Assembly (NCBI GenBank): GCA_963920665.1
Contig: OY987269.1
Coordinates: 17,176,501-17,240,500 of the forward strand
Origin: Straminergon stramineum
Lineage: Eukaryota; Streptophyta; Bryopsida; Hypnales; Calliergonaceae
Reading direction: 5' to 3'
DNA length: 64,000 nucleotides
The translations under genes and the position numbers were made by a program. The notes beneath the pieces were generated by a model that made no database searches, had not been told where the DNA came from, and saw only the letters and a program-made list of their open reading frames with translations. This document shows positions 11,175 to 32,627 of this stretch, piece by piece (position 1 is the stretch's first letter; every line of letters begins with the position of its first letter).

Positions 11175-13439
11175 CACTAGAAGAAAACACATAGTCGTCC
11201 AATTGTGAAATTTGGACACTCAGACGTCAGATCAGACATTAGGCATGTTGACGTAGGTGTCTAATCACATCACGTTTGCAAAAATAGGGGTCGGACATCC
11301 AAGAATCAACCTGGATAGCGGCATGCTAAGCACCGGACATCCAAAAAAACACTAGTCAATGGGTGCCAGAACTCTGCCATGTGGCTACAAATTTGGTGCC
11401 ACCTGAGCATGGGTAGCCAAGTTGGCAATTTTCTCATCCATCTAATTTTGGTGATGTGGCATCTGATGTGTACATTGACCGGGGAGTCAACATTAGGTGA
11501 CGTGGCATCTTCGAATGCTGACATGGACAATTTTGGTGTGTGGAGAAGCCTATTTTGGAGCTTTCTACATACGTATGGAAGATGTCTTTTCAGACATCAC
11601 AAAGTCTAACACGATGTTGTCCTAGACACAACTATATTAAAGACAATGTTTATGCGGAACATGCACTGCTGGTAAGCACTACGATTCTAACGCCATTTGT
11701 GTCATTTGAGGCTTTCACAGTGGGGCATTCGACATGGTTAAGGACATGTTCATGCAATTTTCTACTAGATGTGTGACGCGTTGGATGTCAACATTCACAT
11801 GTACAACATTTTTACAAGTAACAAATCATTTTAGACAACACGTGCATGTTTCATACCAACATGCTTGAAGATTGGGTTTGAGCATTGGATGTCTGAAATG
11901 ACACTAACCAGTTAGGCAATTGAGAAGCACAAGTCTGTGTAGACAATGTTCAGGACGTGTATAGGGCTATGTTTAATGACATGCATGCATAGCTTTTGAT
12001 GCTTCCACGTTTAGGGCAAGCTTAGATGTGATAGCAATGTGCACTGTGAGACGTGAATGAAGACATGTTGTAGACTTCGTAGACATTGACACTGAATTGA
12101 AGGGGTCTAGGATTATGTCCTACCTAACCACATGGTGCATTCCTATGTGCACTTGTAGACAGACGTAGAGACATCAAAACAATGCAGTGCAACATTGCAA
12201 TGATTGTGAGGACGTTGAACATTAGACATTGTGCCCACATTTGAAGAGACCTAAACAACGCTCTGGCATGGCATGTATTTACCAAAGTTGGTTTTATACT
12301 ATATCAATGAATGACATTGCATAGCAAGAGAGCTTAGCACAATCACAATACTTGAAATACATGCACCACTGAATGGAGGAACCTCTAGGCAAACAAAAAA
12401 TATCATATTCATATACCGGGAAAGTGTTGCAAGGAAAACAATCTCCATGAGGACAACAAAGCTTTTGTAAAAGGTAATATAGCACAACATGCCCCACAAA
12501 AAATATGATAGACACTAAACCCGTTTAGATAATCATGAAATAGTGCCACCAAGAAGTTCTCACAATGTTGCGTGAAGCGTCCTCTATGTCTAAGCAAACA
12601 TTTGAGCGTTGAAGGCGAGGTCTCCATGGATAGAAGGAGTCCTGCAAACAAACGCTGGACGTTAGTGATAATGGACAAACAAACAACTAAAGGCCTACCA
12701 GCCACATATCCATGCTTTTGAGAGAATCAAAACACACCTCAATGGTCATTTCTTCGGTGATGCTTCTCCTTTTTTGGGCTGCCCCCCTCCTGTAGGGGGA
12801 TTGGGTTTGGGCACTTGCTGCATGGTTCCCTTCGTAGCCTTCATAGTGGTGACCACTTGTGTTGGCTTTGGTGTTGGCTTCAAGGTCCTTGTCACTCAAT
12901 TGGCGCGAGACGACAATCCCGTAAATGGAAGATTTTCAACCTGATTGCACATAATACCACCGTACATACTATTAGAACTAAATGATAAAACACTATAATA
13001 AGAGAGAGATACAAAATGTCCACTACAATGTCTAAAACAACACACCAATGTCTAGCTCCCATCTATGTTCTTGTCCCGTCCAACATGAGAAATACCTCTC
13101 GAGGGTTGGATTGCCCTGCCAAAGCAATAGGAGTACCCTCTCCCTCAACGGATGCCGGCTGAGCCACTATGGAATATGGATCCGCAGGGACGTCCACGGG
13201 AGCGCTCACCGCGTTATCAACAAGCGTTGCAGGGGGGTTAAGGGCCACTCCGTCAATGCCGGAAGTGGTACCTGCAGCAACATCCAGGGTTGTCATATCG
13301 GACGGGTCAGGGTCACTGGACGTCCCGGACGGATGGGCGAACTGGACCGGACGGCCGGACTGTCCGGACCAATCGGACGGCTTCAATTTTTCAAAGTTGT
13401 GGAATTTTTTTGAATGACACGTCACCTCGGACACCTAGA

Positions 13440-13592
13440 TCCAGGGCTCGGACGTCATGTGAGGGCGCGGACTCCTTCAGGCAGGGCGCGGACTTCAGCG
13501 TCAGCGTTAGGGCGCGGACTCCTTCAGGCAGGGTGCGGACTTCAGCGTCAGCGTTAGGGCGCGGACTCCTTCAGGCAGGGCGCGGATGGGAA
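13440..13592. repeat. GC-rich motif array 1 (hAT left side)
   Basis: Tandem repeats of about 51 bp combine AGGGCGCGGACTCCTTCAGG and AGGGCGCGGACTTCAGCG, about three copies, downstream of the hAT transposase. The core motif is the same as in the arrays at 17.8-18.2, 20.95-21.1 and 27.2-27.4 kb. An AT-rich TATATATATATAA stretch follows at about 13625. Confidence 0.85.
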
Positions 13593-14024
13593 ATGGTGGA
13601 TTTTACTTATGTGTTCTCCAATATATGTATATATATATAAATTTATTTTTTGAACAAATGGGAGACCCCACTGCATTAAAAAGAACTAGTAACTGCAATA
13701 TAATTTACATGATTGCACTCACCAATGTTTCCAACATGCCCGTCAAATACAAAAATACAGAAAAGAAATATTAGTAGGCTACAATGTTTGTGATAACCAA
13801 AACTGTTTATAAAATTCATGCATTGCAAAGTATAATAACAATACAATGAATCTATACTTCCAAAATACGCTCACTTTCTCATAGGTTATCTAAGACATTC
13901 CTTTGGCTTCTCGTCCATCTTTCTTCCAATTGCTACAATTCTCTTCAACTCTTAAAGACCCGAGATCTACCATCGATGCAACTCAATAACCTCAATTATT
14001 CAAACGACTCGACCTACGAACTTC

Positions 14025-17000
14025 TTAGGCACTTGGATCCACTACATTAGCATCTCGAACAACAACATCATCATCCTCTGGTGCCTCATCATTCGCATCT
14101 TCATTGCTGTCATATTCATCTTCTGCTTCACCACTGTCTGTGGTCCAATGTCCCTCAACTTCCGAGTTTTCATTTCGAAGTTCTATTGTAGTTTGACCTT
14201 GACTACGTTTGCGCTTGAACCTCTTATGTCGTTGTGCATTGGGGTCTTCTGCATCAGAATTTATAGTGGGTCCACCTGGAATTGTTGGAACAACAAATGC
14301 CGGGGTTGACCCACTAGGTCCTGGTACGTATGTACTTAGGAACGGTTCTATCACCCTATTTGGATCTCTTGCCCCAATTCCAAGGAGTAGATGATTAGTA
14401 GGCCTTGATGATGATGCTTCTCCAATATGTTGACCTTCTCTTCGTCCATGGCCTCTACTTCCTCCACGGCCTCCAGCCCTTCCACGGCCTTTCGTTTGTC
14501 CACGGCCTTGTTGATATTGACCTAGTTCATGACGAACAGGGGGCCGAGGGGCCATAGGTGGTCTACCACCAATAGTACCACGTGAAACGCTTTGCAGAGT
14601 CAAATCAACATTCCCTAGAGAGCCTAACCCTGCTGGAGAAGGTCTTCGAATGGCATTGGAATTTGTTACTGAAGATGGGTCTATGGAATGTGGTGTTTGT
14701 ATACCTTGATTAGAAATAGTAGGATGGCCCTCAACTGCAGCGGGTACACGAGCAAGGTCTTCTGGTGGTTCTACAAATGCAAAAACATCATTAGGGTCCA
14801 CATGCTCTGGATCAAAAGGCCTTCTCACATTACCAGTTGGTTGGTTTCTTGTAATAGGGCATGCCACTCTTGCATTTCTAACGTTTCTGTCATGATGTCC
14901 TTGAATAGCTCTAATGTTTCGAGTTGATGGCCCCACTCCTATAGGCCTTGTATTTCCATCTCGATTGTGAGAAGATCCTCCACGGTTTGGATTTGCATTC
15001 TTCCCCCTGTTTACGTCGCCATCTTCATTTCCATCGCCATTTCCTGGAGGGAGGTTGTCATCATCGTCGTTGTTGTTATGGGAAATACCATCATCGACGT
15101 TATCGTCATTTGGATTGTTGGTCTCTAGAGAAGACGACAAAGCGGGGACTTCAACGATCCCTTCATTTTGAGGAAGTGGAGGTGAAGGGCTGCGACGTGG
15201 ATTGGGTGGAATGGGTGGCCCCCAAGGACCCCAATGACCATCAAGGAGTTCCTCCTCTCCATCGTCAGCATCTCCGTAGTAGTTCCTTGCTTCCTCAAGG
15301 TGATCAGCTCCTCGCCTCCAAAGATCTGGGTTTGCCGGATACTCTTGAGGTGCTACATAGGCTTCTCCATCAACCTCTTCTTCTTCCTCTGCTTGCATTG
15401 CGTCAAATTCCCGATTGCGTTCATTCGTCGGGAGCGGACCAAGGGCATCTGGATCGGAATCCTCCGAGTACATATTTGCATCATACCAACGAACTAGATC
15501 GGCTCCTGGTCGCTGTCGAAGTACACGGCTATTGGTATAAATATATACCAATGACTTTGCCTTTTCGGGGGCTAATCGATTTCGGACCTTATTGTGAACA
15601 AAGGAATACATACTCCAATTCCTTTCACAAGAGCTAGCAGAACACGTGAGGGATAAAAGACGCACAGCAATTTTTGAAAGAGCTCGATCTCCAACCCTGT
15701 GCCACCATTGGTGGAGAAGCATTTGTGTCACACGGATGTTGGGTGTCATAGCTGGACTGTACGGTCCACTACCCTCCTCAAATTCTATTAATTCCGCCAA
15801 CACATCATCGAAATTCACACCCACTGAATCTACCATCTTGCAGATGACTCTATACAATGCACGTAGGGCAGTTCCATCCACCCTGAGCGCCACATTATCC
15901 AAGAGATGTGGATTCAAAAGGGCCGTAGCGTAGTGTGTATCTTCAAAAACCATGTTCCATCTTTCATTGAAAGATGCTTCCAAAATGACTGCTATGTCAT
16001 CACGTAAGTTGAAAGGTGGTTCTCTTAAAGAATACACGTGCCCTTGCAAATTGTGCATTACGAGCCACGCCCGACCCATGGCTGGTTCTCGTCCATCAAA
16101 CACACGCAAAGCCTTCAATACGTCTTCAGTCATGTATACATAATTCACACATCGTTGCCAGAAAGCCACATCTTGAATGGTTCTTTTGACATTACGTGAA
16201 GCGGTAGCTGCCTGCGGTCCATTTTGTTCGTTCCGTAGGGTATCAAAGTAATTTAGAACACGTGGGTGGTTATTCAACCGCTCCAAGACTCCTTTGAGTT
16301 TCACCAGTCGCTACAACATGAGGAAATTACAAGCGAAGCGGGTTTCGCTAGGCACTACGAGTTGCAGATTCGGACTCAATTCACGGAAAACCGACATGGT
16401 TGCATGATGGTTTCGAATGTATTGGCACAATCTTTTTGCCCTGGCAATTAAATCCGAAAATTCCTGGATTTTGGCCCAATCTTCCAACATGAGATCCAGT
16501 GCATGTGCCATGCAGCCTTGCGCAAAAATGTGCGGATATGTTCGAGTGATGTCTTGCAATGCCCCAAGCATGTTTGCTGCATTATCTGTGCACACTTGTG
16601 TCACATATTTGGGATCCACCTTCTCAATGTACACTTTCATTTGGTCCGCTATGTAGTGCATTGTTTTCTTTTGCGAGGTAGTATCAATTGACCCCAAAAA
16701 TACGTCACTGTAGGGCATGACATCATCACATTCATGAGGGGCCTCCAATTGACATCATCCCAACCATCGGTGCATATCGACACCCCATAGTGCTTGACAG
16801 CAAATCCAACCTTCTCTTGAATCTGCTTCTCAATTTGCAACCTCCTCGGTTCAATTAAATTAGTCCTGAACTGATGGTAAGAAGGTGGACTATATTCAAA
16901 CCTTGCCTGTGAGGTTGCCTTTACAGCCTCAATGAAGGCTCGATGCCTTGCCACATTAAATGGCACATTCGCTTCATAGAAAAAACTTGCCCACTTCTCA

Positions 17001-17497
17001 TCCAACTCCTTCTTCTTTGCAATGTTGAATGCGTCCGCCGTGCGTTGCTGACGTAGTGATCCAGATCTCGTAGAATTCGATCCAGTAAGACTATATGACG
17101 TTTGTAGAATATCATTTCCTTCTGAAACGTTTGCCCCTTCTTCCGCTCTCCCACCATTGATCCCACCTGTCACCTCATTTTCAGTAGCTTCACTTGAACT
17201 TGCACGTGCAGTTGCTCTAGATGGCGCACTTTGAATTGGTTCTCCCTCATACATGTCCTCGACATCCATTCGTAGCGGGACAAAACCTGTACAATTGGCA
17301 AATCTATGTCGCACATGACGAGGCATACTTCGACAAATTGACCTCTCCGATTTTGAGCCATATCCGAAATGTGCAAAAGCACGCTCACGTTTGTAATTGA
17401 AGGTCCCAGCATAGAAAACACAAGTCACCTTAATCCCATTCTCCGTAAAGTTCAGCCATGGTTCCCATTCCTTGGTCTGCTTCCTTTGACTTGCCAT
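14025..17497 (-). pseudogene. hAT transposase (BED/DUF659/hAT-C type) with long C-terminal tail
   Basis: Transposase of the surrounding element. The start chosen is the ATG at 17497 (MASQRKQTKEWEPWL). The N-terminus is a degenerate BED finger (VTCVFYAG ... HVRHRFANC, second Cys lost). A DUF659 region follows (NVARHRAFIEAVKA, YGVSICTDGWDDV), and after a one-base frameshift near 16700 the second catalytic Asp region (VTQVCTDNAANML). An in-frame TAG at 16311 precedes VKLKGVLERL. The hAT dimerisation domain follows (WWHRVGDRALSKIAVRLLSL, SCERNWSMYSFVHNKVRNRL). After it come about 490 further residues: acidic and Asn/Asp-rich, then a Gly/Arg block (RGRGRAGGRGGSRGHGRR), then an acidic end. Such a tail is unusual for the family. 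Promoter: TATA at 17756-17766 with motif array 2 behind it. The frameshift and TAG mean this copy is inactive. Confidence 0.9.
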
Positions 17498-17755
17498 TGC
17501 GTTCAACCGTTCACAAATAATTTCAAATGTCTTCCTCCTCCTTCGTATTGAAGTTAAAAAGATCGTAGATATACCGAACAAAGTATCAGTAACAGCAGTT
17601 AGCGCTAATCCACTGCTTGAACTGATTTTGACATCACCTCAGCAGCAAACTAGGGCCATCTGACACCCAAGTAGACTGACAAGGAGCTCAAAATGAATTG
17701 AAGTCCAAGAGATAGAGGCCAAGTGACAAATGTGGGGAATGCCGGGTCTTCCTTT

Positions 17756-18235
17756 TCTTTATATACTTAGGGAATGCAAGGGCGTGGACTTCACCGATGT
17801 GCGTGGCAGCAGGGCACGGACGTCTTCATTCCCAAAGTATAGGGCGGGGACGCACACTTCAATCCCTAGCATCAGGGCACGAATAGGAAGGTAGGGCGGG
17901 GACTTGAAGTTAGGGCGCGGACTCCAGGGCGCGGACTTGAAGTCAGGGCGCGGACTTCAGGGCGCGGACTTGAAGTCAGGGCACAGATTCTAGGGCGCGG
18001 ACTCCAAGGCGCGGACTCCAGGGCGGACAATTCACAGAGGCGGAAGAACTTGAGAGAGCGCAGCTGAATCACAGACTCCATAGTGTGGACTTGAAGTGAA
18101 GGTGTGGACTCCAAGGCGCGGACTTGAAGCTAGGGCGCGGACTTGAAGTCAGGGCGCGGACTTCAGGGCGCGGACTTGAAGTCAGGGCGCGGACTCCAGG
18201 GCGCGGACTTCAGGGCGTGGACGTGCTCGTCCAGC
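17756..18235 (-). promoter_or_regulatory. TATA box plus GC-rich motif array 2, promoter of the hAT transposase
   Basis: On the minus strand a TATA box (GTATATAAAG, 17756-17766) lies about 260 bases upstream of the transposase ATG. Directly behind it, from about 17780 to 18235, are more than a dozen copies of AGGGCGCGGACT with spacers TTGAAGTC, TCC or TTC. The stretch is GC-rich and CpG-dense in otherwise AT-rich DNA. The array-then-TATA order recurs at the other genes of the element. Promoter function is inferred. Confidence 0.7.
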
Positions 18236-18440
18236 ATAGGAGGCAGGACTTTGAAATGCGCTTGGGCTTTGACATTCTTCAGTCCCTCCTTTTTTTGGAG
18301 CGGAGGAACCATTAATTATAGCCTCAACAACTTGTTTTGGATTCCGACAAGGCAATGAAAGCAAGATGCCAAATAAAGAGCTCCATTGACTAAGATTTGG
18401 AAGAAACTTCATGGAAGAGCATGTCCCCTTCATTGTGGTG
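18212..18440. repeat. 229-bp block, copy 1 (second copy at 21337)
   Basis: This block starts in the last array motif (AGGGCGTGGACGTGCTCGTC) and runs through CATTCTTCAGTCCCTCC to TCCCCTTCATTGTGGTG. It is almost identical to 21337-21565, so part of the element was duplicated internally and recently compared with the T-rich repeats around it. Confidence 0.9.
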
Positions 18441-18449
18441 AAAGATGTT

Positions 18450-19500
18450 AGCAAAGCTCTCCCATCCCAACTCTATGCCATTCATTTGCGTTTGGATCAT
18501 TCTCTCTCACATATTTTTGGCTTCATTCTTGAAACTCTCACATTCCAACTTATACTAATTTTTTTCTTTTGGTTGAATCATTCTTTCTTCTATTTTGTTC
18601 CTAAAACACTCCCATCCCAACTCAAAGCCAAATGTTCATTTTTTGTTCCATCATTCCTTTCCCTATTTTTTTGAATCATTCCTAAAACTCTCCCATCCCA
18701 ATTCATTGTTCTTTTTTTTATTTGTTGAATCATCTCCTTTTCTATTTTGTTTTGCTTCATTATTTAGCAAGACTCTTTTCTAGTTTTCTTCCAACTCCAT
18801 GCCGATCTTGATTTGTTGAATCATTCCCTTTCCTATTTCATTTTTGCTTATTTCCTAAAGTTCTCCCACCCCAATTCAAAGCCATTAATTTTTTGTTCCA
18901 CCATTCCCTTTCCTATTTTTTTTGGCTTTGGATTCCTAAACACTTCCATGCCATTTTGGGGGGGTGGATTAATTCCCTTTCCTATTTTATTTGTTTCATT
19001 AGGAAAGTTGTTCCATCCCAAGTTATACAAAAACTAAATGGCATTATTATTCCCATCCTAGTTTTTTTGGGCTTGATTAGCAAAATTGCTCCATTCCAAC
19101 CCAAGACCCAACTCCCCCAAGGCCATTGAAATGATTTAATTTTTGTATTCCCTAAACCCTTTCTAATTTTTTTTGGTTTCATTTGCAAGATTATTCTATC
19201 CCAACTCAATGCCATTTATTTTTTGGTATATCATTTACTTCCTAATTTTTTGTGGGCTTCATTTGCAACATTATCCCATGCCATCCCAATGCCATTTATT
19301 TTTTGTATATCATTCCCTCCCTAGTTTTTTTTGGCTTGATTAGCAAAATTGTTCCATCCCACCTCAATGCACTTTATTTTTTGTATATCATTCACTCCCT
19401 ATTTTTTTTGGCTTGATTAGCAAAACTCTTACATTCCAACTCAAGGCCATTTAGTTTTGTGGTATCCCAATTCAATGATAAATTATTTTTACGATATCAA
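18450..19500. repeat. T-rich degenerate minisatellite, block 1
   Basis: Imperfect tandem units of about 65-80 bp built from CCCATCCCAACTCAATGCCA, a T-run with TTTTTTGTTCCATCATTCCC, and TTTTTTGGCTTGATTAGCAAA. There is no coding potential beyond low-complexity frames. Flanking DNA to 20860 is AT-rich and holds no gene I can see. Confidence 0.75.
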
Positions 19501-20869
19501 ATTGAAGTCTTTCCATTCTCCTTGCATGTCATATACACAAAGTAGGTAAGAAAAAAAATTGAGGATAAAGGCTATCATATGCATTAGAAAATCAACATTG
19601 GCAATCGACACCTTGCATTAAATCTTTAGGGTCACTCCATCCCAACTCCATTCCAACTCAATGATAAATTTTATTACAGTACATTTCCATTCTCTTCACA
19701 TGTCATAAAAAAATAGATAATAAAAAAATATGAAGTTAAAGGCCATCACATGCATTAGAAAATCAAGAATGATAATGGATACTTTGCATTAAATCTTGAG
19801 TAGAAAAATTTAACCCATTTGTTTATGGTACATGGGGCAAAAGACTCTTTAATAAAAAGGAAAATAGTTAAAAAAAAATTCCTATCCATTTAGGTCCCAA
19901 CTTTGTATAAAATAGAATTGTAGGGCCTTACATCGGATCCTACCCTTGGATTCCTTGCTTGCCTCGAATTCTCTTCCTTGGATTTCTTTCTCCCCGTTTT
20001 TCTTTGCTAGAATTATATTTTAGCAAAAAATCAAATTCAAGTATTTGTGTTTGGGATTTAGGCCCTTAGGCTCAAACATTGTAACTTGTAACTAAAGTTT
20101 TGAATCATACCGAAATTAAATTTACGAAAGTTTGGATGACCCCATCCCTCGTTATGGGCATTGAATTTCAAAGCACTTACATTTGAAGTCAATGCCATTT
20201 TGGGGGGTTGGATAACTTGGAAGGGAACCATTTCTAAGAAAATAGCTACAAGGGATGGTTTTTGAATGGAAGCTCAGATCTTCCATTCTTTTGGATTCAC
20301 GTGAAGGGACTAATATTTGAAAATGCTTGGTATAAGGGTTTTTGGAATAATTGATAGAATGAATTTTATTAATGAACCCATAGGTTTTATTTAACAAATC
20401 CATCATTCATAATAAAGGATTCAATTTGAGGCATATTAACTAAAAGAAATTTATTTCGGAAACGAGAAATTACAAGTTACATTTTCTTCTAAATATAAAG
20501 GGATTGTTTGTTTTTGCTCATATCTCTTCATTGTCTAGCCTTTGTGGCTTGTCCTGTTGTGTATTTTTTTTTATGCAATGGTTCTTTCCATTTGTTAAAA
20601 AAACAAAAAAAATGTAAAGGGATTCAAGTTTTTTTTATTACCTGGCAGTTGGTACAAGGGACTATTGCTTAATTGAACGTACAAGTTAAATTGAAGTAGA
20701 ATGATTGTGAATGCCAATCCATGATTACGAATCATTGGTACAAGAAATTGATTTTCACATGAACTTACAAGTTATATTGATTTGAATGCATGAGAAGGGT
20801 TCTTTTCTAAAGGTAATTGCTACATCTATTTGTTATTTAATTCAAACATAAGCCATTAACTCAAAGCAT

Positions 20870-20897
20870 AAACCCTAAACCCTAAACCCTAAACCCT
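20870..20897 (+). repeat. Interstitial telomere-type repeat, (AAACCCT)4
   Basis: Four exact copies of the land-plant telomere unit lie inside the hAT element, just upstream of motif array 3. Such telo-boxes also occur in plant promoters. Being inside a transposon, it is not a chromosome end. Confidence 0.9.
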
Positions 20898-20944
20898 GCA
20901 CTCTTGAAACCCTTGGTCAAAATAATTCAAGAAGTTGGAGGGTG

Positions 20945-21125
20945 GAACTTCACTGCGCTGGCGCTACTCAGGGCGTGGATGTCATCATAGGGCGGGGACT
21001 GAAGGGCGGGGACTCCAAATGAGGGCGGGGACTTGAAGTTAGGGCACGGACTCCAGGGCACGGACTTGAAGTCAAGGCGCGGACTTCAGGGCGCGGACTC
21101 CACGGCGAAACTCCACTATATAAAT
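20945..21125 (+). promoter_or_regulatory. GC-rich motif array 3 plus TATA box without a recognised gene
   Basis: About eight copies of AGGGCGGGGACT/AGGGCGCGGACT (20970-21105) are followed by CTATATAAAT at 21116-21125, the same array-then-TATA order as the promoters of the three hAT genes. Downstream is an open frame of 117 codons at 21130-21483 with no motif I recognise. It overlaps the 229-bp duplicated block, so I do not call it a gene. This may be a promoter whose gene was lost. Confidence 0.6.
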
Positions 21126-21336
21126 GTAGGTGCGCACATGGGGATGCACTAGGCATGGGATCCCTCCTTCTTCCTATTTAATGGTCTTGGAAGATGGTGT
21201 CCCCCCTTTTCATGGAAAGAGGGAAACATTAAATGCTGTCACACCTTTCTTTAGAGTCCTCATATTCATGGAGAGACAAGAATGCTTTCTCTCACAAATG
21301 TTTTTGCTGAATGGACTGTGTCAGGGCGCGGACTCT

Positions 21337-21565
21337 AGGGCGTGGACGTGCTCGTCCAACACAGGAGGCAGGACTTTGAAATGCGCTTGGGCTTTGACAT
21401 TCTTCAGTCCCTCCTTTTTTTGGAGCGGAGGAACCATTAATTATAGCCTCAACAACTTGTTTTGGATTCCGACAAGGCAATGAAAGCAAGATGCCAAATA
21501 AAGAGCTCCATTGACTAAGATTTGGAAGAAACTTCATGGAAGAGTATGTCCCCTTCATTGTGGTG
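21337..21565. repeat. 229-bp block, copy 2
   Basis: Near-identical to 18212-18440 in the same orientation, again preceded by the GC-rich motif (TCAGGGCGCGGACTCTAG). Confidence 0.9.
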
Positions 21566-21789
21566 GGAAATGTTTTTCCTTACTTCTTGCAACACTTCAA
21601 ACTACTTTGAACCAACAAATAGTTTAGGGTGTAAAAAAAAGACTCTAAATTCTAAAGTGTTTAGGACACTTTGAGGAAATATTTAGGAAATGTTTTGGAA
21701 ATGTAGTGTACTAGATAAAAGGGTAAAACCTCATTTTGTTTAAAATGAAAGAAATAGTAGGGGGTTAAAAAAAATTCTAGGCCTTCAAT

Positions 21790-23350
21790 ACGTCACTTGA
21801 ATTTTTAATTCCATCATTCCCTTTCCTATCTTGGGGGGCTTCATTCCTAAAACTCTTCCATCCCACCTCAATGCCAGTAATTTTTTTGTAAATCATTCAA
21901 TTTTCTTTTTGGCTTCATGAACTCTTTAAACACTTCCATTTCAACTATTTGCCCTCTGTTTTTTGTTCCACCATTTCTTTCTTCATTAATTCCTAAAACT
22001 CTTTTATTCCAACTCCATGCCAATATTTATTTGTTGCGTCATTTCCTTTCCTATTTTTTTTGCTTTCCATTTTTTTTCCTTCATTTATTCCTGAAACTCT
22101 TTTATTCCAACTTTAAGCAAGCTTTTTTTTATTCCATCATTCCCTTTCCTATTTTTTTTACTCATTAGCAAAATTCTTCCATCCCAACTCAATAATAAAT
22201 GTTTTTTATGGTACCAAATTGGAGTCTTTCCATTCACTTCCCATTTCTCATATGAAGAAATAGGTAATCAATAATAAGATTTGTTTCATATCTCTTTCAC
22301 ATTTGTTTGCTTTTATTAACATTTAAAATGCACTTACATTCTAAAGGATTGACATTTCTTTCCCTTCCCTAGTTTTCGTCATTGATTGGAAATGAATCCT
22401 ACTCCAATTCAATGACATTTAATTTCATTCCCTAAATGTTTTTATCATTAAATCCTATTCCAATTCAATGACATTACATTTCTTCACCTAATTTTTTTTA
22501 TCATTGAATATTTGAATCCTATTTCAACTCAATGACATTTCATTTTCTCACCTAAATTTTATCCCCATTGAATCCTAATCCAATTCAATGACATTTCATT
22601 TTTCTCACTAACTTTTTTATTTATTAAATCCTATTCTAACTCAAAGACATTTTACTTCCTTCCCTAATTTAAAGTTTTCAATTTTATTTTATGGTCATTT
22701 TTTGGTAACCATTTTATTGGATATGTACCTATTTCCATCCCAATTTAATGATTCCTATTTACCTTTCCCAATTTTGGGTGCTTCGGATAACAATACACTT
22801 CCATGCCATTTTTTTGGTAGGATTCATTCCCTTTCTGATTTTTTTTGCTTGATTAGCAAAATTGTTTCATCCCAAGTCATACAAAAACTAAATGGCATTA
22901 TTATTCTCTTCCTAAATTATTTCCAATTCAATGCCATTTTTTTTTCATTGATCATTCCCTTCCTAATTTTTTTGTGCTTGATTAGCAAATTGCTCCATTT
23001 CAACCCAAGTGCATTTAATTTTTGTATTCCCTAAACCCATTCTAATTTTTTGGGGCTTGATTTGCAAGATCATTTTATCCCAACTCAATGCCATTTATTT
23101 TTTGGTATATCATTCTTTCCCTATTTTTTTGCTTTTCTCCATCATTCCTTTGCCTATTTTAGTATTTTGCAATTAAATATGTACCTATTATCATCCCATT
23201 TTTGGGAGGGTTCCATCATTCCTTATTTCCTTTGCATTAATGACATTTCAAAAGTGTTTTTTTCCTATTAAATGACATTTGTAGTCCTTCCCTAATTTTA
23301 TTCATTAATTGGAAATTGGGAATGAATTTTACTCCATTTCAATGACATTT
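21790..23350. repeat. T-rich degenerate minisatellite, block 2
   Basis: Same unit types as block 1 (CCCATCCCAACTCAAT, TTTTTTGCTTGATTAGCAAA). Near 22370-22640 there is a second unit type of about 60 bp built on AATCCTATTCCAATTCAATG, repeated about five times. No genes. Confidence 0.75.
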
Positions 23351-23583
23351 CATTTCATGGTATAAATAATTTTAATATGTATGAAGTCGACAAGTCGTTT
23401 CAAATGGGTATGTGCAAAAAATAAACGAAGTCAATTTGGGCAAAACCATTCAAAACAAAATCATATATATTTCATATGCATAGTGTAATATAAAGTAGGA
23501 AAGTATATAAGCCTATATAATGCTAGGAAAGTAAGTCTTCTAAGAAAACCTAAGCTCACTAGCTAGAACACTCTAAACTATAC

Positions 23584-26500
23584 TTAGTCAATGTTCATTG
23601 GACTACTTGCACTACCACTTGGTCCAGCCTCATTGTCATGTGTCCCGACGTGGACTGGAAGGTCTTCATCTAAGCCCAAACGAAGTCTACGAACTGCAGA
23701 TCGAATTCTCCTTGCTGGTCCGTCTTCCTCTAATATAGCCCTCAATATTTGTGATTGTTTGAGGCTCTGAAGACATTGGAGAGTTCCCGGGCTATGTTGT
23801 TCTAACAAATAGTCCATCCTTTCATTTCGAAAGGTTTCTCACCACTCTGACTCTGATAGTTGTGCAAGTTCAGCAGGGTCTAGCATGCCAATGTCTTCCC
23901 CCATCCGCATCCCATTGTCGTCAGTAATGCGAACTCCATCAACGCCCCATAACCATCCACGAGGATGAGGTCCAAATTGGAAGTGTTGTCCAGCTTCGTT
24001 CCAATGCCCATTGAAGCATTGGAAGAAGAAATTCCGTCTTCCTTTGCTGAAGTTGTCCTTTAGTGGAACCAAGTGGTGGCACACCTCCACAATTTGAGCC
24101 GGATCTCTTTCCCAACCCCATTCGGTACAAAGGTTTTGTTTGTCCAACGAATGGATGTTCAATTTCCAGCTCCACACCAAGTTTGTTCCCCACTTTTGAG
24201 AATGATCAGGGGCATTTTCAGCATTGAATTCCCAATGCGGTGGCATGTAGGGAACTAATCCAAACAACTCATACAAGCGCTCATGGAAAGGAGCCTTGCA
24301 CAATGAACAGCGTCGGCGAATAATCATCAAGCTAATTAGGCAGAATGGGTGGTACAAATGTTCACACATGCCTAGGTGCATTCCACCTTCTAGGCCAAAT
24401 GGATTAAGACAAATGGGACATGTAGTTCCATCATGCACGAAGGTTGAAGGATTTGGCCACAGTAGTAATGGATTGCCTTGATGGTTGACGGCAGAGTGTC
24501 GCGCCCCTTAGTGACACTTACCACCTTAAGCTCACTTTCCAAACACTTAGCACCTTAGTGCCATTAAGGTTCACGCTCTCCTAACACTGCACATGCCACG
24601 CACCCACAATGTTAGGTTCCAACCCAAGTCACGGGGTTCCCCATTCCTCCGTGACTCCCAATCCTTTCCTTCTAATCCTTAACTCCCACAAGACACCGGG
24701 CATGTCATTTGATGACATGGGGCAGAACTTCCATTGATGTCCAAGCAATCGGTGAGGCACTACTCCCACCGGTGCTAATCGCCCTTGAATGGGACCCAAC
24801 TCCCCATTAGGCCCAACCCAACTCATTTCGGGACTCACTAATCGGGACTCACCCAACGGGACTCACACCATGGCCTAGTGTAGAGTGGGACACCACCCAA
24901 CCGGTATCAAGGAGTGCCCAAGCACTCCATGGTAACACACAAGTGGTGGTGAGGCTCCAACACTAACCTCACCACCCGGGGCCACTTAGGCTCACCATGG
25001 CACCATCCGGGAGTGAGGAGGGAGACCACCCCTCCTCATAGTACTCTCTGCGGGATTCGGCAGCCCCCCCCCATACTAGAGGTCACCGGGAACCCCCAAG
25101 ATGCACCCCATCTTGGAAGACCACCCATTTCTCCCGATTCGCACTACTTTGGGACTCCCGAACTTCCACCCGGCATAACTTTGCGGTCCGGGATCCAAAT
25201 CGCACATGCGACCCCATTTTCGACATCTACGAGACGCGTAGATGCCTATGGACTACTCACTTGCTCCATTCGGACAAGTACTCGCAAAGATATCGCCCTC
25301 CAAAGATTCGGGACACTCCCGGCGCGGCCAGAGCACTCCCGGCGCGACCAGGGCGCTCCCGGCGCGACCGGGACACCCCCAACTTTGAACGCCCATAACT
25401 TTTGACTCGCAAGTCCAAATCACGCGTTCTTTGGACGGCTAGAAGCGTCTTCTCAAGACCTTTCCAAGCATGTATCACACGCCTTCAAATTCATCCGGAT
25501 CAGAGCGCTACATCGCTCTGATCGCTCGGGACTCCTAGTCCCCCTCACCTCATCTCTTGCAAGGCTTGGGGAGTCACCCCCAATGTCCCCCTTGCTCACC
25601 AAGGTGGCACGGGCACGCCTTGTGATGAGGGTCGTGACACAGAGCCAACTGTATTCTTGAAATCCCAAGCATGTTTGGACCAATCGATGGATGTTGGTCC
25701 ACCACCAATGTTGATGGTTGTCATTTCATCCATATTGAAAAGATCATCCACCAGGGCCCACGATGTCAAACCAAAAACCCTCTCTTGATTGTTCGCGCCG
25801 TAATTGTTGTCTATTTTTTTGAATTCTTCCACCATTTGCCTAGTTCTATCAACACTAAAGATGCATGCCATCTTCCATTGGTAATATTGCTCCATCAACG
25901 CATGCAATTGATTTTTCAATCTCAAATTGTTTGCAAGCGCGTCCGTCAGTTGGGTGCTTCGGTCAACTGGTATTGCTGCAACTACATTCGTGGGTAATTC
26001 TACAAAGGACAATGAATCTTCTTGAGTACCCATTGTTGCACCAACTTCTGTATGTTCCAATGGAATTTGAGAATTATTTGAAGGCCCTTGCGCTTCCCCT
26101 CGTGGATCCTGACCAGCATTGGTTAATGTTGCTGCCTCAAGAGCGTGTCAAAGTACCTCCATCTCAAGTTGTTGTTGATTGATGATGTTGTCCTTCTCTT
26201 TGATTTCTTCCCTCAATTTGTTGACATCATCATATAAAGAATGCAATTCCGCATTCTTGTCATTCACTTCGGTCAACAAACTCTGAATTCGGTTTGCAGC
26301 AGCTGTAACATCAACAATTCCTATTGTTGGTTCGTCAGTAGGTGGCACCTGTTCCTCCACAACATTTTCTGGTAAAACCTCATTAGTTGCACGCGTAGCC
26401 TCCTCTTTTTAGCACGTTGTTGTTGTGTTCTAGGGTTGACTACAATTGGTACATGAGATCCATCAAAGTCGCTGTTCGTAGATGAGTCCGAAGTGTCATA

Positions 26501-27028
26501 GTTTCGTGGTGCGCGAACCTGTGTAGTTTTTTTTGATAGACCACCTTCCGGGTATCTTTTTACCCCCCTTGGAATGAATCCATTCTCTGGGGGAGGAATT
26601 TTGACATTTTCCCCCATTGTCTTCAAAGTTGACCAATCCACTCTCTTGTTCAACTTCACCTCCGCATGGACCCCTCGTGCAATGAAAAGATGCACTTCAT
26701 TGCGTGTGACGTTCGGGACATCATACAACACCTGGAACACCTCAATGAATCAGTTCGTGAACTCATTGTCAAGGCAATGTTTCAAATTTGCCTTGTGGAA
26801 GCGTCTATGAAAGTTATGTCGCTCTTCCGGGAAGACCTTGTCAATGTGGCACCACTTGATGTAATTGGTGCAGTCATCATAAGTCCATGGATCAGGCACG
26901 TCCTCCCACCCCTTGAATGCAAGCTTGGTAGGGTTACGTAGAACATGCAGTCGCTTATGATGTTTGGTTCCTGCTCGCAGCCGGGTCTTGTCTCGTTCCT
27001 CCTTGGTCCTTCTTGGTGGTGTAGCCAT
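23584..27028 (-). pseudogene. Coiled-coil/RING-finger protein carried by the hAT element
   Basis: An intronless frame of about 765 codons once the solo LTR is removed; start chosen at 27028 (MATPPRRTKEERDKTRLRAG). The N-terminal half has no family I recognise. The middle is a predicted coiled coil (IQSLLTEVNDKNAELHSL, LREEIKEKDNIINQQQ). The C-terminal third has a RING-like Cys/His cluster (CPICLNPF, CEHLYHPFC, CSLC), suggesting an E3 ubiquitin ligase; this is inference. Damage: TGA at about 26750 (between EFTN and FIEVFQ), a one-base shift in an A-run near 26405, TGA at about 26148, TGA at 23839 and the LTR insertion. The frame rejoins exactly as KNTVGS + AVNHQG when the LTR and one 5-bp duplication are removed. 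It is transcribed divergently from the kinase-like gene. Confidence 0.7.
24497..25639. mobile_element. Solo LTR (1143 bp) inserted in the RING gene
   Basis: It begins TGTCGCGCCCC and ends GGGTCGTGACA (TG...CA), flanked by the perfect 5-bp target duplication CAGAG (24492-24496 and 25640-25644). It holds no gag-pol coding sequence, only CG-rich non-coding DNA including three copies of CTCCCGGCGCG. A lone LTR with matching duplication is the product expected of recombination between two LTRs of a retrotransposon. It is younger than the hAT insertion, since it lies inside hAT cargo. Confidence 0.93.
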
Positions 27029-27156
27029 TTTTGCAGAAAAATTCGAAAACCTCCAACGTGGCAATCAAGTAGACCCCGCACAACGCTCACAACCAGCTCA
27101 ACAAAGAGGTGGAAGGTTGAGAGTATGCAGGGCGGGCACAAATGGGGCGGAAACGA

Positions 27157-27343
27157 CTTTATATAGTTGGAGGTGGGGGACGCTAGGGCGCGGACGCCAT
27201 CGCAGGGGGCACGGACACCATCGCAGGGGGCGCGGACTCCAACACTGGGGTGCGGACGCCATCTCAGGGGGCGTGGACCTCTGGGAGAGGGGCGGGAACA
27301 CTAAAAGTCAGGGCGTGGACGTGAGCGGGGGGACTATATAAAG
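27157..27343. promoter_or_regulatory. Bidirectional promoter with GC-rich motif array 4
   Basis: Two mirror-image TATA boxes, CTATATAAAG on the minus strand (27157-27166, toward the RING gene, ATG 27028) and CTATATAAAG on the plus strand (27334-27343, toward the kinase gene, ATG 27538), enclose about 165 bp filled with AGGGCGCGGAC/AGGGGGCGCGGAC motifs. Inverted copies (AGTCCCCGCCCT, AGTCCGCGCCCT) follow to about 27390. The arrangement supports coupled expression of the two divergent genes. Confidence 0.75.
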
Positions 27344-27537
27344 CGAGTCCCCGCCCTCATTTCTTTGCCAAGTCCGCGCCCTATGCTTCACACGCTAGTT
27401 CGTCCCCGCGGCCTATGTGAGTGAGTTTGGTGGGTGGTGGGCTTGGCCCGCATATGTGACCTAGTTTTTTTGAATTTTATTTAACTTTCGTGCTTTCGGA
27501 TAGATACGGAGGCCCATCGTACCAAATTTTTTTTATT

Positions 27538-29118
27538 ATGACAAGGGAAGGGAGTGGATTTGCGGAAAAACTTCCTATGTTTAAAGATTTGGATGATGTT
27601 GGTGAGATGGTAATTCCATCTACGAACACATTGATGTCCTCAGGTTCATCAAATCCTTCCTCATCAGGCCAAAAGAAGCGCAAAAAAACCCAAAATCCCC
27701 ATATGCCTCCACATGAATTCATAGTTGAAGGGAGAGCAATAGCTGTGGTATTCTACACTCGTCGAGGTACAACTATGTTGACCAGGGAGTATGTGGCGCA
27801 CAACGAAGAAGGATACCACAAACTGACAAGGGACTTGCGAAGGGAGCTGGAGTCAAAGTTTGAAGCATCTGAGAAATTCAACAATTTCTCTAATTATTGG
27901 TTGCACCAAGATTGGCTGGATAAACAGGTAGTTGCCCTCACAACCAATATAGTGTCAAATTGGTGTTACCACACAGGTAAGAAAGAGGATGGTAGTGATT
28001 GGGACATGCAGAACAAAGAGTTGGTTGCAAAATTGAAAATCATTCAAAATTTTGCTCAACAATTTTCTTCATTGCGTAAGAAAAAGCAAGCACCATGGAA
28101 AGCGACAATTGAAGACGCAATAAGGGCTCATTGTGTGAGTGGAACATTCAAGTGGCTTGAAAGTTCAGTAAAAGTCATCCCCATGCCAGAACAGAGTGCG
28201 GTTGGTTCATATGGGACCGTGAGGAAGGTGATGCTTACAAAACTTGAGAGCATTCCTAGTTGGATATTTTTTGCTAGGAAGAGCTTGAAAACCACAAATG
28301 AAAAGGAGAAGCGCCAAGGAATCATCAATGAGGCGGGAGGGTGTCGAGTGATACATCCTGGCATCATTCGAATTGCGTACCTCCACCCTAAAACGATGGA
28401 AGGCTATACGCTGTGGTGGAATGGAGGATCTCTAATTTCTTTCTTATCCAAATACAATTCGAAAGTGAGCAAATCAGTGGATGTGGATGACATTGAGCAT
28501 GAACAAGGTACGGGGTTGACAAAAGAGGAGCTTGCATGGGTTGCAACTTACCGAAAGAACTGAGTGAACTTGGCACTCTCCTTGCTTGTCATTGTAGGGA
28601 AATGCCACGATGCACAATACATGCACAACGACATAACTCCATCCAATGTTTTGCTCCATTTTGATGATTGGAAAGAACAGAGGGTGTACATAGGGATATG
28701 TGATTGGGGACTTTCTAGCCGAGTTGTAGAGAAGGAGCCATCAAGGTATGGCTTTCCCAGCATGGAGATTCTGGCAAAAGAGAAGAAGAAGTGAAGGTTT
28801 GCAGCCCCTGAATTGTTTTATGTATACGGAGAGCAGAGTTCAGCAAATTCAATTGAGGCCATGCAGAAAACACATTTGTACTCCATAGCTGCTGATGCAC
28901 ATGCGACGGGATGGATAGCAGCTGCAATTTGGAAAGAGGATTGGAACCCCAAATACTTTACAACGAAGAATCCAGAGCAATATCAGAACCTCAGGATCAA
29001 ATTGGAAAGCCTCGTAAAAGAGGATGTGAGTGAAAGGGCGTCAGTGCCAGATGTTCTAGACACATTGAGAAACACACCCCACTGTTGGACTATGCCAGAT
29101 TGTTGTTATTGTACATAG
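27538..29118 (+). pseudogene. Protein-kinase-like protein carried by the hAT element
   Basis: A single-exon frame of 527 codons from the ATG at 27538 to TAG at 29116-29118. TGA codons at about 28561 and 28792 break it; the frame is otherwise continuous. Residues 1 to about 215 are unrecognised. The rest carries kinase landmarks in order: a glycine loop (VGSYGTVRKV), candidate ATP-binding Lys in IFFARKSLK, catalytic loop HNDITPSNVLL (HRD Asp and the Asn kept, the usual Lys replaced by Thr), CDWG in place of DFG, and APEL. The ATP, base and metal residues are mostly kept, so the ancestor may have been active. Divergent promoter shared with the RING gene. The substrate is unknown, and I recognise no kinase subfamily. 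Confidence 0.72.
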
Positions 29119-29783
29119 TATTTAGTTGTTTCACTTTTTGTAGTTTAGCATATAGTTTAGGCATAGAGGGTAAATCATCCTCATAGAGGACCATGTGTAC
29201 CTACTTGGAAATTGCCAAACACCTCAAAATATATATAAAATCGGATGTATTCTATACTCAAAATCTCATAATATATTAATATTTCATTTGATTGTTCTTT
29301 CTCATTGCATTTTTATGAGTTCTATGAATTGATGATAAAACTTAAATAAAAAAAATGAATGCAATAGTTTGGTATAAAAATACATACACTTTATGTTTTC
29401 ACTATACCTATGTTTTAGGAGTTCATGAAGCCCCCTAAAAAAAAGAAATGATCCACCAAAAAAAAAATGACATTGAAGTAGATTGGAAGAATTTTAGGAA
29501 TGAAGAAAAAAATATGGAGTGTTGGAGTGACTTGGAATATGGCATATGAAATATGAAATGGAAATATGTAAAAGCATATTAATTTAGCATATGTAAATCC
29601 AGTCCGCGCCCTGACGATTCTGTCCGCGCCCTACATGTTGCAGAATCCATGTGGCATCCACGTGGCCTATTTTTCTGTTTTCATGAAGTCAACTTTGTGT
29701 TGACTGTATCGGACGGGCGAGACCTCTAACGGACGTCCCAGACGGACGGGCAAACCGGACGTCTGTCTACTATGACAACCATG
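29119..29783. other. hAT right subterminal region
   Basis: AT-rich sequence is followed by two inverted copies of the GC-rich motif (TCCGCGCCCT at about 29602 and 29622), a palindrome-like GTCAACTTTGTGTTGAC, and the GC-rich terminal stretch ATCGGACGGG to the terminus at 29783. No gene. Confidence 0.7.
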
Positions 29784-32627
29784 GCAACATCAATCTCAAT
29801 CTGTTTGGGATCAATGTCTCTTGCGTTGTCCGGGGGATGGTCCATCAAGTAGTCAACCTCAGGCTCCGCATCCTCATCTGCATCCATGCCAACGTCTGCA
29901 CCAACTTCACCAGCCTGCACAGCATTGGTTCTATCTCCATCAACATCACTTGCAGTAGTGTTGTGACCATGAAAGACTTGGGGAATATCGGTGTAGACGT
30001 TGCCCTGCAAGAGTGCCAGGCCTGCGGGCGTTGATGCAAGAATCTGATGCTATACACTGTCAGGGCCAAAGGATTGCACAAGCAAATGGATCAAGTTATT
30101 CATCTCAGCAAGACGATTTCCAATCTCTGATGTTGTTGCACGCACTCCCTCGATGTCCTGGGGGGATGCATATCGGATGTTTGCATTGCGGAGCTCTTTT
30201 TCATGCCGGGCAAACTCTTCTTCGGTGGCACGCTGAAGCTCATCATCCTGGGGTATGCATCCCAGTTTCAGAGTCTGCCAATTATACATCACAAGCTCAC
30301 TGTTAATCTAAAGAAACAGTAAAGAAAACAAAACATGTGCATCTAGACATTGATGAGGAAATAAATAAGAGGCCACTTGTCAACACCCATGCTTATACAT
30401 GCATGATAACAACATTAACTAATGCTGGTAAGGACAACAAATTTAGCATAGAAACATTGAAACACCACTTAGAGTGAAGCACATGTTACCAACTCCCCCA
30501 TCATACGCTTCTCTATGGACCTCATCTGGGTTTCCTTGTTGCTCTTAGACTTTGAAACTGCACGCATCTGCATTGATTTCTCTTGAGCCTTTGCTGATCT
30601 ACGCTTCGCTTTGAGGGTTTCCCAAACCTTGGGGTTCAAGCCGACGGGCATAGGTAAATCAAGGTCAATGAGCCTCATGAGGTTGTGGCGTACATTGATC
30701 AAAGTCTTCATCACAAACTGAGCATACCAGCCTGGGTTGATCTCAAGACCACCTTTAACAGTCCAGTCTGCAAGGGCAACAAAATCAAGTGAACTAAGAG
30801 TCCAAAGTAGTGAGTCATCTGATAAATTGACATCTTGCTCAACACTAAAACGTCCGAGACAGCATGTGGACGTCTGTTGCACCAACACCAAAACGCAAAC
30901 CATTACAACAACTCCAATGTCAATTAATACCTACTGCCATGCGTTCAAAGAACCGCATCTTGTCCTTCATTGGCTAGTCGCCCCACCCATATGCCTGGTG
31001 GAGATCCTTTGCAAATGACTTCACGTCATTTGCAAGATATTTAGTGGCTTTTCCGTAAGGATTGCCACATCCATCCACCTTCACTACTTGCTTATCCCCC
31101 TTTGCAGTGTCCTCCTTCTTGATGATCCATTTCACACGATTCAAGGGTGGATTTGGAGATGGAGTTGGCTCCTTTTCCAACATCAGTGTGTCGGGATCAT
31201 CGTCTGAGGACGACGAGTCCCCGTACTCGAACATCTGCCTGTGCCATGAAGACCACAAAGTCAAACCAAGAACATCTCTGCTACATAAAGACATACGACG
31301 TCTTCATCGATGTCTAGAACAATGTCTACATCAACGTCTCATGACGAAGCCGGTGTTGGAATCAGTGTCTACTAGCAAAATTACGTTGACGTGAGACTCA
31401 CTTGACAACACCTCAATCAGTTGAATGGCCTTCACATGGACTCCTACGACATGCTACTATAGGCAAGCATTCTCTAAGAAAACCTGAAACTCGAAACAAA
31501 GGGACAAAATGAAAGCACAAACTTGGATTTTGAGGGATCATCGGAGTCATTGTTGGAACCCTCATACTCCACTTCATCTTTTGGGTCAGACTCCTCCACC
31601 TCCTCTTGTGCCATGCGCGCTCGGCGCTTCTTCAATGGTGGACTCCTCGCAGCAGCCTTCCCTTCCCCTTCCCCTTCTCTTGTTGGCGGCTTGCCAATTG
31701 CCAATTGTCATTGCCATGCTTGGAGCGTTGCTCCGGGGATGAACGATTGTAGACCACTTGACGCGGCCTAGCATCTGATGAAATTCCCCGGCCACGTCGT
31801 GACTCTAGTCCACGCTTCATTGGTAATTTTGAACGATTTGGTGCCATTCTTGGTTCTGATAAAGGCCATTTCACAAAATCTTCACCTGCTACCTGTAACA
31901 AACATGCAAGGAAAAACACCAAACGGGATCATTGTGACACTTCCTAAACATCACCTATGGCGTTCAAAGCTAAATATGCAGCACTTCACATGACTGAGAT
32001 GTCTATTACAACATCAGTCTCAACATCTAGACATCATTCTAGGGTTCACTCACGTGACCTTCATATATTTCAAGATATCAAAAAGGGTGTCTAAGTATAG
32101 GGATTTCCAAAAAGATGAGACTCAAGCAACATAGCTATTGCTGTAGGCAAAAATTGAGATTCAGCACGCACAAGGCCTTCATCACTGATCATGACAACAC
32201 AAGTCTCACAATTACTGATTTGAACACCATATGACTACAACAGCACAGTCCCATGGTCCTGGAATTTCACCATGGCGTTTAGACATCTTAGATGTCCACA
32301 ACGACGAATTTACATCAACAGCGACATGCAGTCTCACCAAAATAATCAATAAAAATATAAGCCCAAACATAAGCACCTTGGGGGGCACAGCCAATCCATG
32401 TCAACACAAATAATTTAAAACATTAGGGGGGCTTCCAATGGGGGCCTCAATGTTCATGAACATAAACTACGTTTCCTAACCTATTAAAACCCTAAGCCCA
32501 TAGAGGGGCCAGAAGCCGTAGTTAAAAACTGGAATCAGATTGTTTGCTTCAATGTCCAAAACAGTGATTGCATCCACATTGACATGTCCGCACCAAGATT
32601 GAGACCTCGTACCAAGCATCAACTGAC

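What the first reader, a model, noticed from the sequence alone, without database searches (positions are those of the whole stretch)
13285..29783. A 16.5 kb hAT element that carries a RING-type gene and a kinase-like gene besides its transposase
Termini (13 bp, one mismatch) and a perfect 8-bp target duplication (GCAACATC) define one mobile unit. Removing it restores the frame of the CACTA protein it interrupts, so the whole 16.5 kb (15.4 kb before the later LTR) appears to have moved as one piece. hAT elements are usually a few kb and encode only a transposase. A divergent RING/kinase pair with transposase-like promoters suggests accessory proteins that could act on host ubiquitination or phosphorylation, or on the transposase. 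I know of no described hAT family with this gene set.
Basis: partly seen in the sequence, partly recalled or inferred. Interest (0 to 1): 0.92.

Follow-up and report, generated by a model that had tools for sequence, protein, structure and literature searches.

The report
Three-gene hAT jumping element
A large jumping DNA element, present in many copies in a plant genome that is probably a moss, carries a ubiquitin-ligase-like gene and a protein-kinase gene along with its transposase, which is unusual because elements of this class are thought to carry only the transposase.

Summary
The window element (13285-29783) has 13-bp termini and a perfect 8-bp target duplication. In the host genome (326 Mb, unnamed, probably a moss) 35 of 42 scored transposase copies have both extra genes nearby in the same layout; 58 of 59 scored RING genes have an opposite-strand kinase within 30 kb, 57 within 2 kb; 60 of 68 kinase-side termini have a kinase just inside, pointing at the end. 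All 12 copies read at both ends have perfect, different 8-bp duplications. One 15,467-bp copy has all three frames open. Four of nine older loci were read (kinase 56-67% identical) and all keep kinase and RING. Kinase, RING and transposase show similar purifying selection (dN/dS 0.14-0.30). The motif GGGCNNGGAC lies in arrays at both ends and in the transposase and RING/kinase promoters, and nowhere else in the window. Best reading: a three-gene hAT family whose RING and kinase are maintained accessory proteins; their target is inferred. The window copy is broken in all three genes. Narrow searches of open-licence papers found no such hAT.

The parts
13277..13284 (.). target site duplication GCAACATC (left)
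   Evidence: perfect match to 29784-29791
13285..13297 (+). left (transposase-side) terminus CAGGGTTGTCATA
   Evidence: same kind of end in 10 of 10 further copies read, one of them with first base T
13444..13586 (+). subterminal array of GGGCNNGGAC motifs
14025..17497 (-). hAT transposase gene (ATG at 17497), broken by one frameshift (frames overlap at 16649-16754) and one stop (16311-16313); long low-complexity C-terminal tail
   Evidence: Pfam DUF659 and Dimer_Tnp_hAT; 97 relatives; ATG; open 1167-codon frame in the C1 copy
17780..18222 (+). motif array upstream of the transposase gene
18400..23500 (.). AT-rich non-coding stretch of degenerate repeats, present in the C1 copy too
20990..21347 (+). 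second internal motif array, next to a 253-bp repeat (97% identical) of 18197-18449
23584..27028 (-). RING-H2 protein gene (765 codons in the C1 copy), broken by three stops, one frameshift and a solo LTR
   Evidence: zinc ligands conserved in relatives
24497..25639 (.). later solo LTR-like insertion, 1,143 bp, 5-bp duplications CAGAG at 24492-24496 and 25640-25644
27166..27381 (.). divergent RING/kinase promoter: motif array (27186-27381) in both orientations, with divergent CTATATAAA boxes at about 27166 (-) and 27334 (+)
27538..29118 (+). protein kinase gene (526 codons), single frame with two in-frame TGA at 28561 and 28792
   Evidence: catalytic residues conserved in relatives
29602..29631 (-). 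subterminal motifs at the right end, inverted relative to the left end
29771..29783 (-). right (kinase-side) terminus CATGGTTGTCATA (complement)
   Evidence: 68 such ends in the genome with up to 2 mismatches in 26 bases, 0 for the control pattern
29784..29791 (.). target site duplication GCAACATC (right)

Best explanation
This is one decayed copy of a high-copy, three-gene hAT family of about 15.4 kb. SHOWN: transposase, RING and kinase genes sit between one pair of hAT termini, have moved together many times, and share an element-specific motif placed at the ends and upstream of the genes. INFERRED: the transposase (or an accessory protein) binds the GGGCNNGGAC arrays, which serve both as subterminal recognition sites and as common control sites, so that the three genes are expressed together. 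The RING protein is probably a ubiquitin ligase and the kinase an active kinase; as a pair they most likely mark a nuclear target for removal, either a host silencing factor (most likely) or the transposase itself (dosage control). My odds: about 0.95 for the three-gene unit, 0.8 that the extra genes serve the element, about 0.4 for host silencing as the target. The confidence given here is for the middle claim.
For: Linkage: 35 of 42 scored transposase copies with both genes, against 0.45 of 42 expected by chance for RING; 41 of 42 with an opposite-strand kinase within 40 kb, 37 of them within 12.3 kb; 58 of 59 RING genes with an opposite-strand kinase within 30 kb; 60 of 68 kinase-side ends with a kinase inside pointing at the end. 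Unit mobility: perfect and different 8-bp duplications in the window copy, the C1 copy and 10 of 10 others. A copy with all three frames open, 542, 765 and 1167 codons. Constraint: dN/dS between subfamilies 0.17-0.26 for kinase, 0.18-0.26 for RING, 0.14-0.30 for transposase. Kinase Lys, Glu and Asn in 18 of 18 aligned relatives, catalytic Asp and DWG Asp in 17 of 18; RING ligands in at least 23 of 24 at seven of eight positions. Shared motif: 37 of 37 window occurrences inside the element, 0.3 expected there by simulation, none in the other 47.5 kb. A contig from another source (L001) has an intact 801-codon RING gene behind seven motif copies and a hAT-type end CAGGGTTGTCAA 506 bp past its stop.
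Against: No expression, protein or activity data. Synonymous sites are saturated or near it in most comparisons, so dN/dS is rough. L001 shows no kinase in its 4.9 kb. One transposase copy (C3:6821316) has a kinase-side end 8.9 kb away and no kinase or RING hit near it, so a copy without them seems to exist. Eight of 68 kinase-side ends have no kinase hit. Nineteen of 85 kinase hits have no scored RING or transposase near, although reading four of these 19 (the window and three old loci) showed a RING gene. The one copy read of a different hAT family has neither gene, so hAT elements in this genome do not all need them. The RING domain scores below Pfam's cut-off in the window and in three relatives scanned.
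Confidence: 0.8

Rival explanations
1. Passenger capture: a hAT element picked up a host RING/kinase gene pair once and amplified it without benefit (like Pack-type elements).
For: Gene capture is common in plant DNA transposons (reviewed in PMC13317346, passages read). Most scored copies carry stops: only 6 of 42 transposase core matches, 5 of 59 RING matches and 14 of 85 kinase matches (three of them partial) have none.
Against: Both genes show purifying selection similar to the transposase between subfamilies; the four old loci read still hold the pair; in the C1 copy the genes are single open frames, and the motif and TATA-like boxes stand in their promoter. No source gene outside such elements was identified, but the contigs of the 22 and 24 relatives could not be read.
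Confidence: 0.13
2. The RING/kinase pair is a separate mobile element nested in, or fused with, a hAT element.
For: A second kinase/RING family in the genome has another layout (convergent, mostly about 3.7 kb apart) and no transposase identified yet.
Against: No extra pair of termini seen around the genes; in 44 of the 60 ends with a kinase, the kinase match ends 631-693 bp from the end pattern; the 8-bp duplications flank the whole unit in 12 of 12 copies.
Confidence: 0.03
3. RING and kinase act on the element's own transposase (phosphorylation, then ubiquitination) to limit copy number, rather than on host silencing.
For: The common motif suggests matched dosage; the transposase carries a long low-complexity tail rich in acidic stretches and serines that could be a substrate.
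Against: No direct evidence; self-limitation should be only weakly selected in an amplifying element (general reasoning).
Confidence: 0.3

Closest known systems
hAT superfamily (Ac/Ds, Herves, Tol2 and the like)
   Same: 8-bp duplications, short termini beginning CA, transposase with DUF659 and C-terminal dimerisation region, repeats near the ends; subterminal repeats matter for the hAT-derived Kat1 endonuclease (PMC4763223, start of abstract in a search listing)
   Different: about 15.4 kb instead of a few kb (typical size recalled), and two additional conserved genes with shared promoter motifs
VANDAL (Mutator-like) elements with the anti-silencing gene VANC
   Same: multi-gene plant DNA transposon; the targets of the accessory protein often form tandem repeats within the element (PMC5735166, abstract and Discussion read)
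   Different: different transposase superfamily; VANC is neither a RING protein nor a kinase (recalled); no anti-silencing activity shown here
KIU / Kaonashi Mutator-like elements with a Ulp1 protease domain
   Same: a DNA transposon carrying a conserved domain of the ubiquitin-like modifier pathway (PMC13317346, passages read; the pathway is recalled)
   Different: Ulp1 protease instead of RING protein plus kinase; Mutator-like, not hAT
Two-gene DNA transposons (MuDR mudrA/mudrB, En/Spm TnpA/TnpD)
   Same: a second element-encoded protein besides the transposase (recalled; PMC6446971 lists second ORFs in some MULE groups, passages read)
   Different: those second proteins are not known enzymes of host protein modification (recalled)

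Membership tests
hAT superfamily | 8-bp target site duplication | tested here: met
   12 of 12 copies read at both ends: the window, the C1 copy and 10 chosen for standard spacing from the 35
hAT superfamily | short terminal inverted repeats beginning CA | tested here: met
   13 bp with one mismatch in the window; 19 of 20 ends begin CA, one begins TA
hAT superfamily | transposase with hAT dimerisation domain | tested here: met
   Dimer_Tnp_hAT 31.8 bits, cut-off 21.4
hAT superfamily | catalytic D, D, E residues and excision/integration activity | not tested
   residues not mapped; activity needs an experiment
RING-type ubiquitin ligase | eight zinc ligands in RING order | tested here: met
   six positions 24 of 24, one 23 of 24, the eighth H in 20 and C in 3 of 24
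RING-type ubiquitin ligase | curated domain score and fold | tested here: inconclusive
   below Pfam cut-off in the window and three relatives scanned (best 26.1 bits, cut-off 27.3), but 9 of 24 relatives carry a precomputed RING Pfam entry; best fold match RNF165 RING, probability 0.99 but E 0.23
RING-type ubiquitin ligase | E2 binding and ubiquitin transfer | not testable with these tools
   needs biochemistry
eukaryotic-type protein kinase | kinase domain score and fold | tested here: met
   Pkinase above cut-off 31.7 in four of four relatives scanned (33.4, 43.4, 31.9, 49.8 bits); 1823 PDB chains at E <= 0.001, TM-scores modest, model pLDDT 78. The window's own two pieces gave no Pfam match
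eukaryotic-type protein kinase | catalytic Lys, Glu, Asp, Asn, Asp | tested here: met
   18, 18, 17, 18 and 17 of 18 aligned relatives (18 of the 22 found were aligned), with HND and DWG in place of HRD and DFG
VANDAL/VANC anti-silencing element | Mutator-like transposase and a VANC gene | tested here: not met
   the transposase is hAT; a VANC homologue was not searched for

The most novel reading that the evidence does not exclude
Bryophyte hAT elements have carried a heritable ubiquitin-ligase plus kinase module for a long time, kept under selection and driven from the element's own control motif, as a counter-silencing weapon against the host; at least two deeply separate families in one genome still pair a RING and a kinase gene.
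Probability: 0.35. Interest if true: 0.93.

Novelty: new variant of a known kind. Interest (0 to 1): 0.83.

Why it matters
hAT elements are the textbook one-gene cut-and-paste transposons. A recently amplified family with a conserved RING/kinase module, a copy with all three frames open and a defined candidate control motif makes it directly testable whether DNA transposons use host protein-modification chemistry to control their own movement or host silencing. It also points to two protein families that current annotation leaves unnamed.

Tried and rejected
Viral origin of the pair: no relative confirmed in the viral contig collection. Known RNA family in the element: none at gathering score. 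My first reading of the kinase as frameshifted was wrong; relatives show one frame with two stops. The kinase search of the MAG that holds L001 found nothing and had no positive control. P0081-type hAT family: the one copy read has neither gene; 0 of 45 copies lie within 30 kb of second-family genes and 6 of 45 within 30 kb of main-family genes, the latter perhaps neighbouring or nested insertions; a RING-like fragment stands upstream of one such transposase in L060-L061, unresolved. The transposase of the second kinase/RING family was not found: the search meant for it (P0055) did not complete. The transposase-side end pattern did not complete. The RING model is poor outside a few stretches (pLDDT 66, pTM 0.33), so its N- and C-terminal regions remain unassigned. 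The first divergence estimate was wrong because minus-strand loci were not turned; one search replaces it. dN/dS was first computed and redone with more loci. Literature: ten searches, nine on hAT or other elements with extra genes and one on moss transposable elements; none listed a hAT with RING or kinase genes. The term combinations were narrow and the library lacks most subscription papers, so this is weak evidence of absence.
Full report
OBSERVATION. TSD GCAACATC flanks 13285-29783 on both sides, and the termini match over 13 bp with one mismatch. Joining the flanks leaves one open minus-strand frame of 159 codons through the junction. I could not confirm that this frame is a CACTA protein. 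A solo LTR-like block of 1,143 bp with 5-bp duplications interrupts the RING gene. Without it and one duplication copy the element would be 15,351 bp.

GENES. The minus-strand transposase pieces have DUF659 and Dimer_Tnp_hAT domains. The RING gene (27028 to 23584, minus) and the kinase gene (27538 to 29118, plus) diverge from a 509-bp spacer. All three are broken in this copy. Protein searches found 22 relatives of the kinase, 24 of the RING protein and 97 of the transposase in a database of 5.8 billion sequences; the highest identities listed are 94, 96 and 75 percent (the last over 65 percent of the query). Few carry names; a kinase filed under a Bacilli MAG is most likely a contaminant (inference). 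Kinase catalytic residues are kept in at least 17 of 18 aligned relatives (18 of the 22 were aligned) and RING zinc ligands in at least 23 of 24 at seven of eight positions. The predicted kinase model matches kinase structures; the RING model supports only the small RING domain, weakly.

HOST GENOME TEST. The window lies in a 326-Mb assembly of 59 contigs. The nearest transposase relative that carries a eukaryote's name is from the moss Ceratodon purpureus, 39 percent identical, so I infer a moss; the genome itself is unnamed. With single-protein queries the tool scored 42 of 1019 transposase candidates, 59 of 1746 RING candidates and 84 of 760 kinase candidates (85 rows); counts are of this scored part. 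Of 42 transposase copies, 35 have a same-strand RING gene 2.8-12.6 kb upstream, 28 of them at 5.97-6.65 kb. Of the same 42, 41 have an opposite-strand kinase within 40 kb (37 within 12.3 kb), and 35 have both. Chance would give 0.45 of 42 for RING. Of 59 RING genes, 58 have an opposite-strand kinase within 30 kb, 57 of them within 2 kb; 35 of 59 have a scored transposase within 30 kb. One transposase copy (C3:6821316) has neither gene. Nineteen of 85 kinase rows have no scored RING or transposase near; one of these is the window's own, whose RING and transposase genes are split and so not among the scored hits.

ENDS. I read one further element whole, on contig C1: 36001073-36016539, 15,467 bp, TSD ATCCAAAC, 96.8-98.8 percent identical to the window element in the five longest aligned blocks. 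Its kinase, RING and transposase frames are open over 542, 765 and 1167 codons. I then read both ends of 10 more copies, chosen from the 35 because their spacing was standard: 10 of 10 have perfect 8-bp duplications, all different. A 26-base pattern of the kinase-side end has 68 matches with up to two mismatches and 0 for the reversed control. Sixty of the 68 have a kinase inside, within 5.5 kb and pointing at the end; of the other eight, one has a transposase hit 8.9 kb inside, one a RING hit, and six none of the scored hits.

AGE AND DECAY. Thirty transposase copies differ by 2.9 percent on average (range 1.5-5.2), 90 percent of differences being transitions; 1056 of 1323 changes from the majority base are C to T or G to A (the window copy is included in the second count). 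Stop-free matches are 6 of 42 for the transposase core, 5 of 59 for RING and 14 of 85 for the kinase, three of them partial. This fits recent amplification followed by methylation-driven decay (inference).

OLDER SUBFAMILIES. Nine kinase hits are only 55-67 percent identical; I read four. C8 (56 percent) has transposase, RING pieces in two orientations and a left terminus; C11a (66 percent) has RING, transposase fragments and a left terminus; C11b (64 percent) has the divergent RING/kinase pair and no transposase in 18.9 kb; C7 (67 percent) has the pair and, further on, a different hAT transposase. No right terminus with the duplication was found for C8 or C11a. Between the C1 copy and these, dN/dS (Nei-Gojobori, stops skipped, pieces of broken frames pooled) is 0.17-0.26 for the kinase (four loci), 0.18-0.26 for RING (three loci; C8 and L001 saturated) and 0.14 and 0.30 for the transposase (C8, C11a; C7 saturated).

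OTHER GENOMES. A scan of the prokaryote genome collection found one RING relative, on a 4.9-kb contig in a cyanobacterial MAG, which I take for plant contamination. It has an intact 801-codon RING gene, seven GTCCNNGCCC motifs before it, one after it, and a hAT-type end at 4829. No kinase is on that contig and no second end was found.

CONTROL MOTIF. GGGCNNGGAC or its complement occurs 37 times in the window, all inside the element; simulation expects 0.3 in the element. The arrays stand at both ends (in opposite orientation), upstream of the transposase, in the middle, and in the RING/kinase spacer together with divergent CTATATAAA boxes. The C1 copy has 33, at the corresponding places. The exact box was not found in the C8 or C11a loci. 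This links the extra genes to the element's own signals.

SECOND FAMILY. With more distant queries the genome shows a second kinase family (53 of 83 hits, by my sorting; the other 30 are hits already seen with the first query) and a second RING family (53 of 57 scored; the other four are main-family). Twenty-one of the 53 RING genes have such a kinase within 30 kb, all 21 convergent, 16 of them 3.5-4.0 kb apart. Their transposase is unknown, and I read no DNA of this family. A third, P0081-type hAT family (45 scored copies) has neither gene in the one copy read.

MECHANISM. Shown: a three-gene unit, repeated transposition as a unit, a shared motif, and dN/dS well below 1 for all three proteins. 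Inferred: co-expression through the motif, ligase and kinase activity, and their target. The closest functional parallels are the VANDAL system, where an accessory protein binds motifs that often form tandem repeats and removes silencing (PMC5735166, abstract and Discussion read), and Ulp1-carrying Mutator-like elements (PMC13317346, passages read). A review of giant transposons has no mention of hAT in its main text (PMC6431247, term search and passages). Ten literature searches, nine on hAT or other elements with extra genes and one on moss transposable elements, listed no hAT element with this gene set.

VERDICT. Membership in hAT is met on the features tested; the gene set makes it a new variant. 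What the RING and kinase proteins do remains open.

Noticed in passing
G000 C5:6084673-6092174 and similar places (21 pairs): Second kinase family (mostly 586-codon frames) and second RING family (mostly 903-codon frames) lie convergent, usually about 3.7 kb apart; transposase not identified.
   Followed up: partly
L062-L063 and the other places: Another hAT family (P0081-type transposase, 45 scored copies); the one copy read has no RING or kinase gene: a possible comparison group.
   Followed up: partly
L060-L061 joined, 9177-16006: A P0081-type transposase with a RING-like fragment (25-34% identity) upstream on the same strand; CAGGGTTGACA ends nearby but no matching duplication.
   Followed up: partly
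window 18197-18449 and 21322-21574: 253-bp direct repeat, 97% identical, each next to a motif array: looks like a duplicated transposase promoter inside the element.
   Followed up: no
window 24497-25639: Solo LTR-like insertion, TG...CA, 5-bp duplication CAGAG, inside the RING gene.
   Followed up: yes
window 35167-35754: Tandem array with a 49-bp period.
   Followed up: no
window 10317-10538 and 44686-44907: 222-bp inverted repeat pair, 97% complementary, 34 kb apart: another repeat family in the window.
   Followed up: no
P0002 and P0096 (public records named Bacilli bacterium): A kinase and a DUF659 protein filed under a Bacilli MAG belong to these plant transposon families; probably contamination of a public MAG.
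   Followed up: no
G000 contig C11: Six of the ten kinase hits on C11 are of the diverged 60-67% type; C11 may keep old copies (a sex or low-recombination chromosome would fit).
   Followed up: no
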